64,000 nucleotides of DNA, from assembly GCF_000993785.3 (NCBI RefSeq), contig NZ_CP009922.3:4898001-4962000 (forward strand). Reading direction: 5' to 3'. This document shows, one piece after another, positions 54,270 through 64,000 of this stretch. Every line of letters begins with the position of its first letter. The stretch's first letter is position 1. The translations under genes and the position numbers were made by a program. Source of the DNA: Streptomyces xiamenensis (GTDB lineage: Bacteria > Actinomycetota > Actinomycetes > Streptomycetales > Streptomycetaceae). The notes beneath the pieces are model-generated. The model searched no databases, had not been told where the DNA came from, and saw nothing but the letters and a program-made list of their open reading frames with translations.

Positions 54270-55268
54270 TCAGCCCAGGGTCGCCACCATCACTGCCTTG
54301 ATGGTGTGCATCCGGTTCTCGGCCTGGTCGAAGACCACCGAGTGCTGCGACTCGAAGACCTCGTCGGTGACCTCCAGCGAGCTGAGACCGTAGCGTTCGT
54401 GCAGCTCACGGCCCACCTGGGTGCCCAGGTCGTGGAAGGCGGGCAGGCAGTGCAGGAAACGGACGTCCGGGTTTCCGGTGGCGCGCAGCACGTCCATGGT
54501 GACGGCGTACGGGGTCAGCAGCCCGATCCGCTCCTCCCACGCCTCGACCGGCTCACCCATCGACACCCACACATCGGTGGCCACGAAGTCCGCGCCCGCC
54601 ACGCCCTCGGCGACATCCTCGGTCAGCGTGATCCGGGCCCCGGTGCGCTCCGCCAGCTCCCGCGCCGCGGCGACCACCGTGTCCTCGGGCCACAGCACGC
54701 GCGGCGCGACGATCCGTACGTCCATGCCGAGCAGCGCGCCGGTGGCCAGGTAGGAGTTGCCCATGTTGTTGCGGGCGTCGCCGAGGTAGGCGTAGGCGAT
54801 CTCCTCCAGCGGCCGGTCGCTGTGCTCGGTCATGGTCAGCACGTCGGCGAGCATCTGGGTGGGGTGCCAGTCGTCGGTGAGGCCGTTGTACACCGGGACC
54901 CCGGCGTGCGCGGCCAGCTCCTCCACCGTCTGCTGGGCGGAGCCCCGGTACTGGATCGCGTCGAACATCCGGCCGAGCACCCGCGCGGTGTCCTTGGCCG
55001 ACTCCTTGTATCCGACGTGGGTGCCCGAGGGGTCCAGATAGGTGGTGGCGGCCCCCTGGTCGGCCGCCGCCACCTCGAACGAACAGCGGGTACGGGTGGA
55101 CGCCTTCTCGAAGATCAGCGCGATGTTCTTGCCCACCAGCCGCCGCTCCTCGGCCCCGGCGCGCCGGGCGGCCTTCAGCTCGGCGGCCAGGGTGACCAGG
55201 GAACGGAACTCCTCCGGGGTGAGGTCCAGTTCCTTGAGCAAGTGGCGGCCGGTGAGTTCTGTCGCCAT
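54270..55268 (-). CDS. argF: Ornithine carbamoyltransferase (probably the catabolic enzyme of the arginine deiminase pathway)
   Basis: This enzyme of 332 residues interconverts citrulline and ornithine plus carbamoyl phosphate. Carbamoyl-phosphate motif [13 protein letters not shown], ornithine-side motif [15 protein letters not shown], and [19 protein letters not shown] are intact. Its position directly downstream of arginine deiminase suggests the catabolic direction (arcB would then be apt); the sequence does not decide this. The start ATG at 55268 has AGGAG upstream. A well-formed promoter lies in the 101 bp gap (55318-55348), so it can be expressed without arcA. Confidence 0.93.
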
Positions 55269-55317
55269 GAGAGGGCTCCTGATCCGAAAAGATGACTGAC
55301 GGTGTTCGATGGCTGGA

Positions 55318-55348
55318 ATTCTATACGGGCCCTCTCATGGCTATGCAA
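55318..55348 (-). promoter_or_regulatory. Sigma-70-type promoter for argF
   Basis: On the minus strand TTGCAT (55348-55343) and TATAGA (55325-55320, followed by AT) are separated by exactly 17 nt, close to the HrdB consensus and striking in this GC-rich DNA. The TTGCATAGCCATG part also resembles half of an ArgR (ARG) box, so arginine control is possible. Confidence 0.7.
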
Positions 55349-55369
55349 GGGCCGTCGGGCCCGGCCGGC

Positions 55370-56605
55370 TCAGCTCACCGGATCCCGCTCCACCGGGCAG
55401 CTCATGCAGCGCGGCCCGCCCCGTCCCCGCCCCAGCTCACTGCCCGGGATCTCCAGCACCTCGATGCCGCTGCGCCGCAGATACGTATTGGTCGTCACGT
55501 TGCGCTCGTACGTCACCACCACGCCCGGCTCCACCGCCAGTACGTTGCAGCCGTCGTCCCACTGCTCCCGCTCCGCCGCGTGCACATCCTGCGTCGCGGT
55601 CAGCACCCGGATGGAGTCCAGGCCCAGCGCCGCCGCGATCGCCCGGTGCATGTGCTCCGGCGGATGGTCGGTCACCTTCAGCCCCCCGTCGTCCGAACCC
55701 GGCTCGATGGTGTACGACCGCAGCATCCCCAGCCCCGCGTACTGGGTGAAGCTCTCCGCGTCCACCATCGTCAGCACCGTGTCCAAGTGCATGAACGCCC
55801 GCCGCTTGGGCATGTCCAGCGCCACGATCACGCGCGCCGAACCCGTCGCGAACAGCCGCCGCGCCAGCAGCTCCACCGCCTGCGGCGTGGTCCGCTCGCT
55901 CATCCCCACCAGCACGGCACCGCCGCCGATCACCAGCACGTCCCCGCCCTCGATGGTGGACGGATGCCCGCCCTGCCCCTCCGACCACCGGTGGAACGCC
56001 CCGGCCCCGGGCCCGGCGAACAGCGGGTGGTGCCCGTAGATCGCCTCGAAGTGCACGCTCTCGCGCTGCCTGGCCGGCCAGCGCATCGCGTTGATGGCCA
56101 CCCCGTCGTACACCCACGCCGAGGTGTCCCGGGTGAACAGGTGGTTGGGCAGCGGCTGGAGCAGGAAGTCGTCCTGCTCCATCACGTGGAACCGCACCGA
56201 GGACGGCTCGCGGTGCGCGTCCAGGTACTCCCGCTTGGTCATGCCCCCGATCAGCGCCTCGGCCAGCTCCTCGTCCGGCAGCCCCTCGAACACCGAACGC
56301 AGTTCATCGGTGGCCAGCGGCCCGTACTCGCGCTCGTCGAAGACCCGGTCGAGCACCAGGCCCCGCGCCGCCGGGATCGCCAGCGACTCGGCGAGCAGCT
56401 CCCCGAACAGATGCACGGTGACGCCGCGCTCGCGAAGCAGCTCGGCGAAGGTGTCGTGCTCCTGCTGCGCCCGGCGCACCCACAGCACGTCGTCGAAGAG
56501 CAGATCGTTCTTGTTGCTCGGGGTGAGCCGCTTCAGTTCAAGACCGGGCCGGTGCAGGATGACGCGGCGCAGCCGCCCGGTCTCGGAGTCGACATGGAAG
56601 GTCAT
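55370..56605 (-). CDS. arcA: Arginine deiminase
   Basis: The enzyme converts arginine to citrulline and ammonia. The protein is 411 residues with the catalytic cysteine near the C-terminus (Cys400 in GGPRCMSCP) and the guanidino-binding segments [19 protein letters not shown] and [12 protein letters not shown], all intact. The start ATG at 56605 ([12 protein letters not shown]) matches the family; ATG 56623 adds six residues. It is upstream of ornithine carbamoyltransferase. No carbamate kinase or arginine/ornithine antiporter gene accompanies them here, so the energy-yielding last step would need a gene elsewhere. Confidence 0.95.
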
Positions 56606-56744
56606 GTCCCCATCCTGCGTCATCCGTCCCGTGCTGCCCCTCCCGTTGCGCGATCAGGTTCCTGACAGTCCGCGCGGGCGGGCGGGACCGTGTCCCGGGC
56701 CGGGGCGCCGTGTGCTCCGGGCCGATGGCCCATAGTGTCGGAAC

Positions 56745-58857: not shown

Positions 58858-59505
58858 TCAGGACGCCGGCGCCTGAACGCCCGGCGGCTGGAGAAGACGT
58901 TCCAGCAGCAGCAACCCGCTCTTCAGATCGGCGCTCTCGTCGAGCAGCCACTGGGTGCTGAGCCCGTCGGCCACGGCGAGGACCAGGGAGGCCGCCTCGT
59001 CCAGAGGGATGTCCGACCGGACGGTACCGGCCGCCCGGCCCTCTTCGAGAAGCGTCCGGATCTCACCCCGCAGATGGGCGTACCGCTCGGAGAAGTGCGC
59101 CCGTGAGCGGTCGTTCCCGGCCTCCAGCGCGTGCGCCACCATGCTGTTCAGCAGGGCCATCAGCCCCGGTACCCGCATGCTGTGCTCGGCCGAGCGCTGG
59201 ACGAGGTCGATGAAGGAGCCGGCGTCCCGCTCGGTGGTGTCGAGGAAGCGCCGGTCGTACTCCTGGAGCACTTCCAGGAAGAGCTGTTCGCGGGTGCCGA
59301 AGTGGTGCTTGAGCACCGGATGCGTCACGCCGATCGCCTCCGCGACGGCGCGCAGCGACGTTCCCTCGAACCCCAGCCGGTCGTAGACCGCCAGCACTTC
59401 GTCAATGATCTGCTGCCGCCGGGCGAGGCCCTTGGCGTACTTCCCCCGCTTGGTCTCGCCGTCCTGCCGGGGCGGCCGGTCGTCCGATGGGCCCTGGCCG
59501 GTCAT
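58858..59505 (-). CDS. TetR/AcrR-family repressor of the divergent MMPL exporter
   Basis: This is a regulator of 215 residues. The helix-turn-helix lies at about 30-75 (RQQIIDEVLAVYDRLGFEGTSLRAVAEAIGVTHPVLKHHFGTREQLF), and the rest is a helical ligand-binding domain. It is divergent from the MMPL transporter gene. The intergenic DNA contains one perfect 22 bp palindrome (59574-59595), the obvious operator, through which it should repress the exporter and itself until a ligand binds. The ligand is unknown. Confidence 0.9.
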   Translation of the reverse strand: MTGQGPSDDRPPRQDGETKRGKYAKGLARRQQIIDEVLAVYDRLGFEGTSLRAVAEAIGVTHPVLKHHFGTREQLFLEVLQEYDRRFLDTTERDAGSFIDLVQRSAEHSMRVPGLMALLNSMVAHALEAGNDRSRAHFSERYAHLRGEIRTLLEEGRAAGTVRSDIPLDEAASLVLAVADGLSTQWLLDESADLKSGLLLLERLLQPPGVQAPAS

Positions 59506-59573
59506 GGCACACCTCCACTGCGCTCGCCGGGCCGGTGCGGCACGGCCCGCCCGATCCTATGACTGCGACCACG

Positions 59574-59595
59574 AAAATATCCACCTGGATATTTT
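59574..59595. promoter_or_regulatory. TetR operator palindrome
   Basis: AAAATATCCA (59574-59583) and TGGATATTTT (59586-59595) are perfect complements with a 2-bp centre CC. It lies 69 bp from the tetR start and 100 bp from the MMPL start, and is very AT-rich for this genome. Confidence 0.88.
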
Positions 59596-59694
59596 TGCGG
59601 TACGGTCGTTCCAGCGACCGCTCACGAAGGTGACGTCACGGGAAACCGCACCCACCCGACGCGGCGCGGACGAGCACACACAGGAGGAATGGCC

Positions 59695-62001
59695 ATGGCA
59701 TGGCAGTTGTTCAGGCTCGGACGCTGGTCGTTCCGGCACCGCTGGACCGTGGTGGGAATCTGGACCCTGCTGCTCCTCACCCTCGCCGTCGGAGCGACGA
59801 CCCTCTCCGGCAGGACGAACGACAACTTCGAGCTGTCCGGCCTCGAATCGACCCAGGCGTTCGACCTCATCAAGGAACGCGACCCCGAGGCCGCCCCCGA
59901 CGGCGCCACCGCCAGGATCGTCTTCCAGGCACCGGAGAACGCCTCCCTGACGGACCCGGCCGGCCAACAGGCGGTGACCGAGGCCCTCGCCGCCCTGACG
60001 ACGGACAACGTGCACGCGGTCCTCGACCCGTTCACCTACGGCACGATCACCGAGGACGGCCGCACCGGCTACGCCTCGGTCAGCTACGCCCACAGCGCCG
60101 CCGACCTCTCCCCGGCCGACCGCGAAGCCCTCGAAACCGCCCGCGACATCGCCGAACGGGCCGGCCTGACGGCCACCGTCGGCGGCGATGTCCTCGGCGT
60201 CGAGATGGACGGGGCCCTCGCCGAACTGATGGGCATCGCCATCGCCCTCGTGGTGCTCGCCCTGACCTTCGGATCGCTCCTCGCGGCCGGGATGCCGCTG
60301 CTCACCGCGCTGGTCGGCGTCGGCATCGGCGTCGCCGCCATCGCCACCCTGACCGGCTTCACCGAGCTGAGCACCACGACTCCCGCGCTCGGCACGATGC
60401 TCGGCCTGGCCGTCGGCATCGACTACGCGCTGTTCATCCTCTCCCGCTACCAGAGTGAGGTGCGCCAGGGCCGCCCGCTGGAGGAGGCGGCGGGCCGCGC
60501 CGTGGGCACCGCCGGTTCGGCGGTGGTCTTCGCCGGACTCACCGTCATCATCGCGCTCGTCGGCCTCTCCGTGTGCGGCATCGGCTTCCTCACCGAGATG
60601 GGCCTGGGCGGGGCGTTCACCGTGGCCATCGCCGTACTCGTCGCCCTCACCCTGCTGCCCGCACTCCTCGGCCTCGCCGGCCCCCGCGTCACCGGACGAC
60701 GCTCCCCGAAGAAGCCCACCGCCGCGTCCGACGCCGATGACGCCCCCGCCACCCGCCCCCGTACCCTCGGCCGCCGCTGGGTCGAAGGCCTCGCCCGGTA
60801 CCGCTGGCCGGCACTCGTGGCCGGGATCGCGATCGCCGCCGTCGCCGCCCTCCCCGCGGCCTCCCTGCAACTCGCGCTCCCCGGCGACAGCACCAAGCCC
60901 GCCGGCAGCGACGCCCGCGTCGCCTACGACGTCATCTCCGACGAGTTCGGCGCCGGAGCCAACGGCCCGCTGCTCGTGGTCATCGACACCGACCGGGCCC
61001 CGGACCCTGCCTCGGCGGTCGACACCGCCACGCAGACCCTGGCGACGCTGGCCGCCCGCGACGACTCCTCCATCGCCGCCGTCATCCCGGCTCTCACCAG
61101 CGACAACCCCGAAGCGGTACAGGCCTACACGCAGCAACTCGCCACGGCCCGCCTCGCCACCCTCACGGTGATCCCCGTCGCCGGTCCCTCGCACCAGTCC
61201 ACCAAGGACCTCGTCGCCGACCTCCGCACCACCCTGGCGGACCTGCCCGAGCAGACCGGCGCCCGTGCGATGGTCACCGGCCTCACCGCCGTCGATGTCG
61301 ACATCTCCAACGCGCTCATCGACGTGTTCCCGCTCTATCTCGCCGTCGTCGTCGGCCTGGCCGTCATCCTCCTGATCGCGGTCTTCCGTTCCCTCTGGGT
61401 ACCGCTGAAGGCCGCCCTCGGCTTCCTCTTCTCCGTCGGCGCCGCCCTGGGCGCGACCGTCGCGGTCTTCCAGTGGGGCTGGCTCAACCAACTCGTCGGA
61501 CTCGACGCCACCGGCCCGGTGCTCTTCCTGCTGCCGATCCTGCTGACCGGCATCCTGTTCGGCCTGGCGATGGACTACGAGGTCTTTCTCGTCACCCGCA
61601 TGCGGGAGGCGTATGTCCACGGCACCCCGGCACGGCAGGCCGTCATCGACGGATTCACCCACAGCGCCCGCGTCGTGGGGGCCGCCGCCCTCATCATGGT
61701 CGGCGTCTTCGCGGGCTTCACCCTGACCGACGACATCATCCTCAAGACCATCGGATTCGCCCTCGCCGTCGGTGTCCTGGTCGACGCGTTCCTGGTCCGC
61801 ATGCTCATCGTCCCGGCGGTCATGTTCATCATCGGCCGGCGCATCTGGTGGATGCCCCGCGCGATGGACCGCCTCATCCCCACCGTGGACGTCGAGGGCG
61901 AGGCCCTCGCCGCCCGCCTCGCGGCGAACGGCCCGCACACACCGGAGAACAACGCGGCGGCAGCCCCCAACAGGTCAGCCACGAGGGAACCCATCGCTTA
62001 A
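59695..62001 (+). CDS. MMPL-family (RND) transporter
   Basis: This is a membrane exporter of about 768 residues with the duplicated RND layout. One transmembrane helix near the N-terminus (about 20-40) is followed by an extracellular domain (about 45-170), five helices (about 175-330), then a second set: helix near 375, extracellular domain 400-530, and five helices to about 720. Proton-relay residues are seen in GLAVGIDYALFILSRY and GLAMDYEVFLVTRM, the MMPL Asp-Tyr motifs. It exports lipids or hydrophobic drugs; the substrate is unknown. The start ATG at 59695 has AGGAGG 7 bp upstream, better than ATG 59689. It is controlled by the divergent TetR. Confidence 0.92.
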   Translation: MAWQLFRLGRWSFRHRWTVVGIWTLLLLTLAVGATTLSGRTNDNFELSGLESTQAFDLIKERDPEAAPDGATARIVFQAPENASLTDPAGQQAVTEALAALTTDNVHAVLDPFTYGTITEDGRTGYASVSYAHSAADLSPADREALETARDIAERAGLTATVGGDVLGVEMDGALAELMGIAIALVVLALTFGSLLAAGMPLLTALVGVGIGVAAIATLTGFTELSTTTPALGTMLGLAVGIDYALFILSRYQSEVRQGRPLEEAAGRAVGTAGSAVVFAGLTVIIALVGLSVCGIGFLTEMGLGGAFTVAIAVLVALTLLPALLGLAGPRVTGRRSPKKPTAASDADDAPATRPRTLGRRWVEGLARYRWPALVAGIAIAAVAALPAASLQLALPGDSTKPAGSDARVAYDVISDEFGAGANGPLLVVIDTDRAPDPASAVDTATQTLATLAARDDSSIAAVIPALTSDNPEAVQAYTQQLATARLATLTVIPVAGPSHQSTKDLVADLRTTLADLPEQTGARAMVTGLTAVDVDISNALIDVFPLYLAVVVGLAVILLIAVFRSLWVPLKAALGFLFSVGAALGATVAVFQWGWLNQLVGLDATGPVLFLLPILLTGILFGLAMDYEVFLVTRMREAYVHGTPARQAVIDGFTHSARVVGAAALIMVGVFAGFTLTDDIILKTIGFALAVGVLVDAFLVRMLIVPAVMFIIGRRIWWMPRAMDRLIPTVDVEGEALAARLAANGPHTPENNAAAAPNRSATREPIA

Positions 62002-62746: not shown

Positions 62747-63634
62747 ATGGACATCGCCGAAGAGAACACGGCCCCGGCCACGGTCGCGGAGGCACTTCCG
62801 GCCCCGGCGGGGGAGTACGAACGCGAACCCCACCCCTCCGACAGTCTGCGCACCTTCGGCGCGGTCGTCCAGGCCCTGCGCGAACACGCCGGACTCAGCC
62901 GCGTCGAACTCGGCGAGCGGGTGCGGTACTCCAGGCACACCGTCGAATCCGTGGAACTGGGCCGCCGGATGCCGGACGAGGCGTTCGTGGAACGCGCGGA
63001 AGAAGCCCTCGGCAACACCGGCGCCCTCCGCCGCGCCGCCCGCCACCTCACCCGGGGCGAGGCCGGGTTGGCGGCATGGTTCCGCCGCTGGGCTCGGCTG
63101 GAACGCGAGGCGGTGAGCCTGTGCACCTACGAATGCCGACTGGTGCCGGGCTTGTTGCAGTCGGAGACGTACGCGCGGGCGGTGTTCGAGGGCACGATCC
63201 CCCTGCGTACCGACGAGGAACTGGAAGCCCAGCTCGCCGCCCGAATGCACCGCCAAGAGACGATGCGCGAACGGCCCACTGTCCCCTTCAGCTTCATCGT
63301 CGAGGAGCACGTCTTCCGTCGCCGTTTCGGCGACGCGCAGGCGATGCGCGAACTGATCGACCACGTGCTGGAACGCAGCGCTCCACGCAACGTCTCACTG
63401 CAAGTGGTTCCGCTCGAAGGCGGCCTGCACGCGTGCCTGGACGGCCCGGTCCAGGTACTGGAAACCCCGGAGGGCCGCCGGCTCGGATACTCCGAAGGAC
63501 AGAAGAACGGGAGGCTCATCTCCGACGCAAAAGAGGTGAGTGCACTCTGCCAGCGCTATGACACACTGCGCTCGCAGGCCCTGAGCCCGGGCGCATCCCG
63601 GGACCTGCTGGAGCGACTGCGAGGAGAGCTATGA
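62747..63634 (+). CDS. XRE-family regulator with DUF5753 (WhiJ-like)
   Basis: This protein of 295 residues has an acidic N-terminal extension (1-35), an XRE helix-turn-helix (TFGAVVQALREHAGLSRVELGERVRYSRHTVESVELGRRMP) and a C-terminal DUF5753 domain (SLCTYECRLVPGLLQSETYARAVFEG, PFSFIVEEHVFRRRFG, VSLQVVPLEGGLHACLDGPVQVLE). Members such as WhiJ control development together with small DUF397 proteins. The start ATG at 62747 has GAGAGGAAGG upstream. The stop overlaps the DUF397 start (ATGA, 63631-63634), so the two are coupled. Confidence 0.9.
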   Translation: MDIAEENTAPATVAEALPAPAGEYEREPHPSDSLRTFGAVVQALREHAGLSRVELGERVRYSRHTVESVELGRRMPDEAFVERAEEALGNTGALRRAARHLTRGEAGLAAWFRRWARLEREAVSLCTYECRLVPGLLQSETYARAVFEGTIPLRTDEELEAQLAARMHRQETMRERPTVPFSFIVEEHVFRRRFGDAQAMRELIDHVLERSAPRNVSLQVVPLEGGLHACLDGPVQVLETPEGRRLGYSEGQKNGRLISDAKEVSALCQRYDTLRSQALSPGASRDLLERLRGEL

Positions 63635-63822
63635 GCAGCGGCACGACTGGACTCGCCTGGTTCAAGTCCAGCTACAGCGGCAGCGAGGGCGACAGCTGCG
63701 TGGAGATCGCCATCACCGAACAAGCCATCCACGTACGGGACTCCAAGGACCCCACCCACCCGCCCTTCACGATCAGCCGCCAAGGCTGGTCCCCCTTCGT
63801 ACGCTTCGCGATCCAGCACTGA
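63631..63822 (+). CDS. DUF397 domain protein
   Basis: This is a protein of 63 residues with the DUF397 signature: LAWFKSSYSGSEGDSCVEIA, then VRDSKDPTHPPFTISRQGWSPFVRFA. DUF397 proteins occur in Streptomyces beside XRE/DUF5753 regulators and are thought to antagonise or modulate them. It overlaps the upstream regulator by 4 bp (ATGA). It is the last gene before the CRISPR repeat. Confidence 0.92.
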   Translation: MSSGTTGLAWFKSSYSGSEGDSCVEIAITEQAIHVRDSKDPTHPPFTISRQGWSPFVRFAIQH

Positions 63823-63962: not shown

Positions 63963-64000
63963 CGGAACACCCCCGCAGGTGCGGGGACGACGTGCAGACG
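63963..64000. CRISPR. First visible repeat of a type I-E-like CRISPR array, cut by window edge
   Basis: Bases 63963-63991 form a 29-nt unit that begins CGGAACAC, contains the stem CCCCGC/GCGGGG around AGGT, and ends GACGAC. Its complement has the layout of the E. coli type I-E repeat (TCCCCGC...GCGGGG...CCG) and closely resembles remembered Streptomyces I-E repeats. Nine bases of the first spacer follow (63992-64000). No second repeat is found to the left, so the array extends right, outside the window. By repeat orientation, transcription would run leftward and this would be the leader-distal end. Confidence 0.8.

What the first reader, a model, noticed from the sequence alone, without database searches (positions are those of the whole stretch)
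63963..64000. A CRISPR array starts at the right edge of the window
A single 29-nt unit with the type I-E stem-loop, the conserved CGGAAC...GACGAC ends and a 9-base spacer start is seen. The preceding 140 bp lack another copy, so this is an array terminus and the system (repeats, possibly cas3-cse1-cse2-cas7-cas5-cas6e-cas1-cas2) would lie just outside. Orientation by comparison with the E. coli repeat suggests the leader is on the far side.
Basis: partly seen in the sequence, partly recalled or inferred. Interest (0 to 1): 0.75.

Follow-up and report, generated by a model that had tools for sequence, protein, structure and literature searches.

The report
Edge of ordinary type I-E CRISPR locus

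Summary
The unit at 63963-63991 is the leader-distal repeat of a 21-repeat array that continues past the window edge at 61-62 bp spacing to what would be base 65213. Beyond it lie eight cas genes in standard type I-E order (cas3-cas8e-cas11e-cas7e-cas5e-cas6e-cas1e-cas2e), then a second, 15-repeat array with a different repeat, transcribed the other way. Array 1 reads right to left; its leader lies in the 190 bp before cas3 and shares a conserved block with the second array's leader and with S. harbinensis.

The genome matches Streptomyces xiamenensis 318 in size. Its paper reports CRISPR arrays and Cas proteins (PMC4705527), and Qiu et al. 2016 (PMC4762764) list this strain's repeat as type I-E. 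The layout matches the experimentally active S. avermitilis system.

Spacers match DNA of other Streptomyces: one is 31/33 identical to a phage-type RecT gene with an AAG PAM. Four of the five best-matched spacers have AA upstream, fitting the AAN PAM reported for S. avermitilis.

One refinement: the invariant repeat is 28 nt; base 29 varies (16 G, 16 C, 2 T). Ordinary; low interest.

The parts
63963..63991 (-). Leader-distal (last) repeat of array 1. In crRNA sense (minus strand) GTCGTCCCCGCACCTGCGGGGGTGTTCC+G; the invariant 28-nt core is 63964-63991. The array continues outside the window as 20 more repeats to genome 4963213 (would be 65213).
63992..64000 (-). First 9 bases of the leader-distal spacer (spacer 20 counted from the leader), 32 nt, cut by the window edge at 64000; the rest is outside the window.

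Best explanation
This is the trailing end of the upstream CRISPR array of a complete type I-E CRISPR-Cas locus in Streptomyces xiamenensis. The array is transcribed leftwards from a leader next to cas3. Cas6e cuts the transcript in the repeat hairpin; the crRNAs load Cascade (Cas8e, Cas11e, Cas7e, Cas5e, Cas6e); Cascade finds AAN-flanked protospacers in mobile DNA; Cas3 degrades them. Cas1-Cas2 insert new spacers at the leader end, far from the window, so the spacer at the window edge is the oldest. Shown here: anatomy, leader homology, open reading frames, protospacer matches. Inferred from the S. avermitilis and E. coli systems: transcription, processing, interference and acquisition in this strain.
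For: 21 regularly spaced repeats with unique spacers. Full set of eight I-E cas genes, identified by NCBIfam, Pfam and PADLOC, open reading frames without internal stops. Homologous leaders at both arrays, conserved in S. harbinensis. Repeat RNA folds into a hairpin like the E. coli repeat. Spacers match 30 other Streptomyces genomes against 7 for reversed-spacer controls. Spacer A1_9 is 31/33 identical to a RecT gene with an AAG PAM. Four of five best-matched spacers have AA upstream. S. avermitilis has the same layout and is active (PMC4762764); its PAM is given as AAN (PMC12231136).
Against: Activity in this strain was not tested. Most spacers have no identified target: none in plasmids, one weak match in phages. 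Several protospacer hits are homologues of one gene, so independent cases are few.
Confidence: 0.97

Rival explanations
1. The unit is a chance GC-rich inverted repeat and not part of an array.
For: Only one copy lies inside the window, and the bare stem pattern is expected 0.93 times by chance in this sequence.
Against: 20 more copies follow in register beyond the window edge, next to type I-E cas genes.
Confidence: 0.001
2. The locus is intact in sequence but silent or inactive in this strain: an inherited array kept without current immunity.
For: No expression or activity data were found for this strain. The second array's first two spacers are identical, which may be duplication rather than fresh acquisition. 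A review notes that few actinomycete systems have been tested, and that one (pSHK1) showed no activity in its assays.
Against: All cas frames are open, leaders are conserved and repeats nearly identical. The spacer set is not shared with the nearest relative found, suggesting turnover. A first-spacer duplication was also seen in the active S. avermitilis system.
Confidence: 0.2

Closest known systems
Type I-E CRISPR-Cas of Streptomyces avermitilis (Qiu et al. 2016, PMC4762764)
   Same: Eight cas genes flanked by two arrays; the upstream array transcribed opposite to the cas genes and the downstream one with them; the two arrays have different repeats; conserved CCCCGC-N4-GCGGGG stem; AA-type PAM (AAG in acquisition; AAN effective according to PMC12231136).
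   Different: Repeat sequences differ. There, 29-bp repeats and a conserved AAG acquisition PAM are reported; here base 29 varies (G, C, T) and likely protospacers have AAG, AAC and AAT. No transposase interruption was seen in the arrays here. Activity shown there, not here.
Streptomyces xiamenensis 318 CRISPR arrays as already published (PMC4705527; repeat listed in PMC4762764)
   Same: Same genome size within one base (5,961,402 here, 5,961,401 published); the listed type I-E repeat is exactly the array 2 repeat found here.
   Different: The repeat listed in PMC4762764 is that of array 2, not the array at the window edge. Supplementary table S8 of PMC4705527, which lists its five arrays, could not be read here.
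Streptomyces harbinensis type I-E locus (L014)
   Same: Cas8e 85% identical; arrays on both sides; both leader types conserved; upstream repeat differs by one base.
   Different: No spacer shared at 6 or fewer mismatches (part of that array is masked with N).
Escherichia coli K-12 type I-E system
   Same: Same gene order and the same stem position in the repeat; leader next to the first repeat (own knowledge; PMC4762764 as quoted; fold).
   Different: The 29th repeat base is usually G there (own knowledge); variable here. Two arrays flank the cas genes directly here.

Membership tests
Type I-E CRISPR-Cas | CRISPR array: near-identical short repeats at regular spacing with unique spacers | tested here: met
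   21 repeats, 61-62 bp spacing, 20 unique spacers
Type I-E CRISPR-Cas | Signature Cas8e (Cse1) and Cas11e (Cse2) | tested here: met
   PF09481 E 1.7e-95; PF09485 E 1.4e-28; PADLOC Cas8e and Cas11e
Type I-E CRISPR-Cas | Cas3 with HD nuclease and helicase parts | tested here: met
   Cas3_HD, Helicase_C, Cas3_C and PADLOC Cas3e E 1.1e-196
Type I-E CRISPR-Cas | Cas7e, Cas5e, Cas6e in the same operon | tested here: met
   TIGR01869, TIGR01868 and TIGR01907, all over their cut-offs
Type I-E CRISPR-Cas | Type I-E adaptation pair Cas1e-Cas2e | tested here: met
   TIGR03638 over cut-off; PF09707 and PADLOC Cas2e
Type I-E CRISPR-Cas | Leader next to the first repeat | tested here: met
   Conserved block directly before the first repeat of both arrays and in S. 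harbinensis
Type I-E CRISPR-Cas | AA-type PAM at targets | tested here: met
   AA upstream for four of the five best-matched spacers; small sample
Type I-E CRISPR-Cas | crRNA processing and interference activity | not testable with these tools
   Needs experiment

The most novel reading that the evidence does not exclude
One type I-E cas operon in S. xiamenensis serves two arrays with clearly different repeats while acquiring spacers with a relaxed AAN PAM, so that repeat base 29 is often not G. This would be a modest variation on S. avermitilis, where the acquisition PAM was reported as AAG.
Probability: 0.4. Interest if true: 0.15.

Novelty: already known. Interest (0 to 1): 0.06.

Why it matters
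It matters little beyond this genome: it is a normal immune locus cut by a window edge. It is a good positive control for the scan, since one repeat was enough for a correct call on type, orientation and gene content. The spacers are a small log of past encounters with phages and mobile elements, and the variable 29th base could be used to measure how relaxed PAM choice is in Streptomyces type I-E acquisition.

Tried and rejected
An apparent Cse1-Cse2 fusion (808-aa frame) was rejected: the front of that frame is out-of-frame translation over cas8e, which is a separate 602-aa gene. Rfam found no RNA family at gathering threshold in this locus. Spacers against plasmids gave no match, and against phages one weak match, 29/33 in Streptomyces phage Raleigh with a GAG flank. 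The core of that spacer had no exact match in viral contigs. No spacer is shared with relatives' arrays. No self-target outside the arrays at E 0.001. Matches of spacer A1_19 in many Streptomyces genomes cover only part of the spacer (5-6 mismatches, no AA flank) and were not counted as protospacers.

Full report
Observation. The 29-mer CGGAACACCCCCGCAGGTGCGGGGACGAC is at 63963-63991 and nowhere else in the window at up to 3 mismatches; no match was found in 100 shuffles. The stem alone, CCCCGC-N-GCGGGG, is not remarkable in this GC-rich sequence (0.93 expected), so the decisive test is whether the unit repeats beyond the edge.

The test. The window is bases 4898001-4962000 of a single 5,961,402-bp contig. 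Reading on, the unit recurs 20 more times at 61-62 bp steps to genome 4963213, giving 21 repeats and 20 unique spacers. The edge unit is the last copy on the left.

Surroundings. After a 190-bp intergenic stretch come cas3 (genome 4963404-4966373, 989 aa), cas8e (4966562-4968370, 602 aa), cas11e (ends 4969047; exact start not resolved), cas7e (4969093-4970274), cas5e (4970274-4971119), cas6e (4971124-4971924), cas1e (4971929-4972987) and cas2e (4972984-4973262). All are on the + strand and open; they were identified with NCBIfam, Pfam and PADLOC. A second array of 15 repeats, GTGGTCCCCGCACACGCGGGGATGGTCC, follows to genome 4974208. Its last repeat is degenerate and its first two spacers are identical. 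The Cse1 and Cas1 families were each found at this one locus only in the genome, so both arrays share one cas set.

Orientation. In crRNA sense the array 1 repeat is GTCGTCCCCGCACCTGCGGGGGTGTTCC. The flank of array 1 on the cas3 side and the flank of array 2 on the cas2 side align over ACCGAATGAAAAC and CAG[GC]TCAA[GA]AAG directly before the first repeat, and the same blocks occur in S. harbinensis. New spacers are added next to the leader (established knowledge), so the spacer at the window edge is the oldest (inference).

Repeat length. Base 29 varies: array 1 has 12 G, 6 C and 2 T, array 2 has 10 C and 4 G. The invariant unit is 28 nt. By the known type I-E mechanism, base 29 comes from the PAM of the acquired fragment.

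Targets. Against 393 Streptomyces genomes the spacers matched 30 genomes other than their own, against 7 for the same spacers reversed. Spacer A1_9 is 31/33 identical, with AAG as PAM, to a stretch inside a RecT-family gene (PF03837; PHROG RecT-like) beside a RecE-like exonuclease gene, a phage-type recombination module. A2_6 matches in several genomes with AAC; in L063 the gene is a Prim-Pol primase/polymerase (PF09250). A2_14 matches with AAG and A1_8 with AAT, the latter in or over a frame with an HD domain. The one phage hit is A2_13 in Streptomyces phage Raleigh, 29/33 with GAG. AA is rare in such GC-rich DNA, so AA at four of five spacers supports real protospacers and an AAN PAM; several A2_6 and A2_14 hits are homologues of one gene and count as one case each.

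Known status. The identity of the strain rests on this length and on the identical array 2 repeat. Qiu et al. 2016 list strain 318 (NZ_CP009922) among type I-E systems with the array 2 repeat, and describe the same two-array layout with different repeats in S. avermitilis, where the system is active (PMC4762764). A 2025 review gives AAN as the effective PAM there (PMC12231136). Related loci are common in Streptomyces and other actinomycetes (42 loci; arrays).

Verdict. Real, correctly interpreted, ordinary and already known.

Noticed in passing
63631-63822 and the frame ending at 63634, + strand: An HTH_31/DUF5753 regulator followed by a 63-aa DUF397 protein (a common Streptomyces pair, own knowledge) lies directly left of the array end.
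   Followed up: partly
54270-56623, - strand: Arginine deiminase (55370-56623) next to ornithine/aspartate-type carbamoyltransferase (54270-55268), as in an arginine deiminase pathway.
   Followed up: partly
58858-62001: A TetR-family regulator (- strand, 58858-59505) divergent from an MMPL-family transporter (+ strand, 59689-62001).
   Followed up: partly
L010:11828-11977 (genome 4973327-4973476): The two leader-proximal spacers of array 2 are identical, a repeat-spacer duplication like the one reported in S. avermitilis.
   Followed up: partly
L010:12798-14324, - strand (genome 4974297-4975823): A MurA-like enolpyruvyl transferase with an N-terminal helix-turn-helix domain lies just right of array 2; an unusual-looking fusion that was not examined further.
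   Followed up: no
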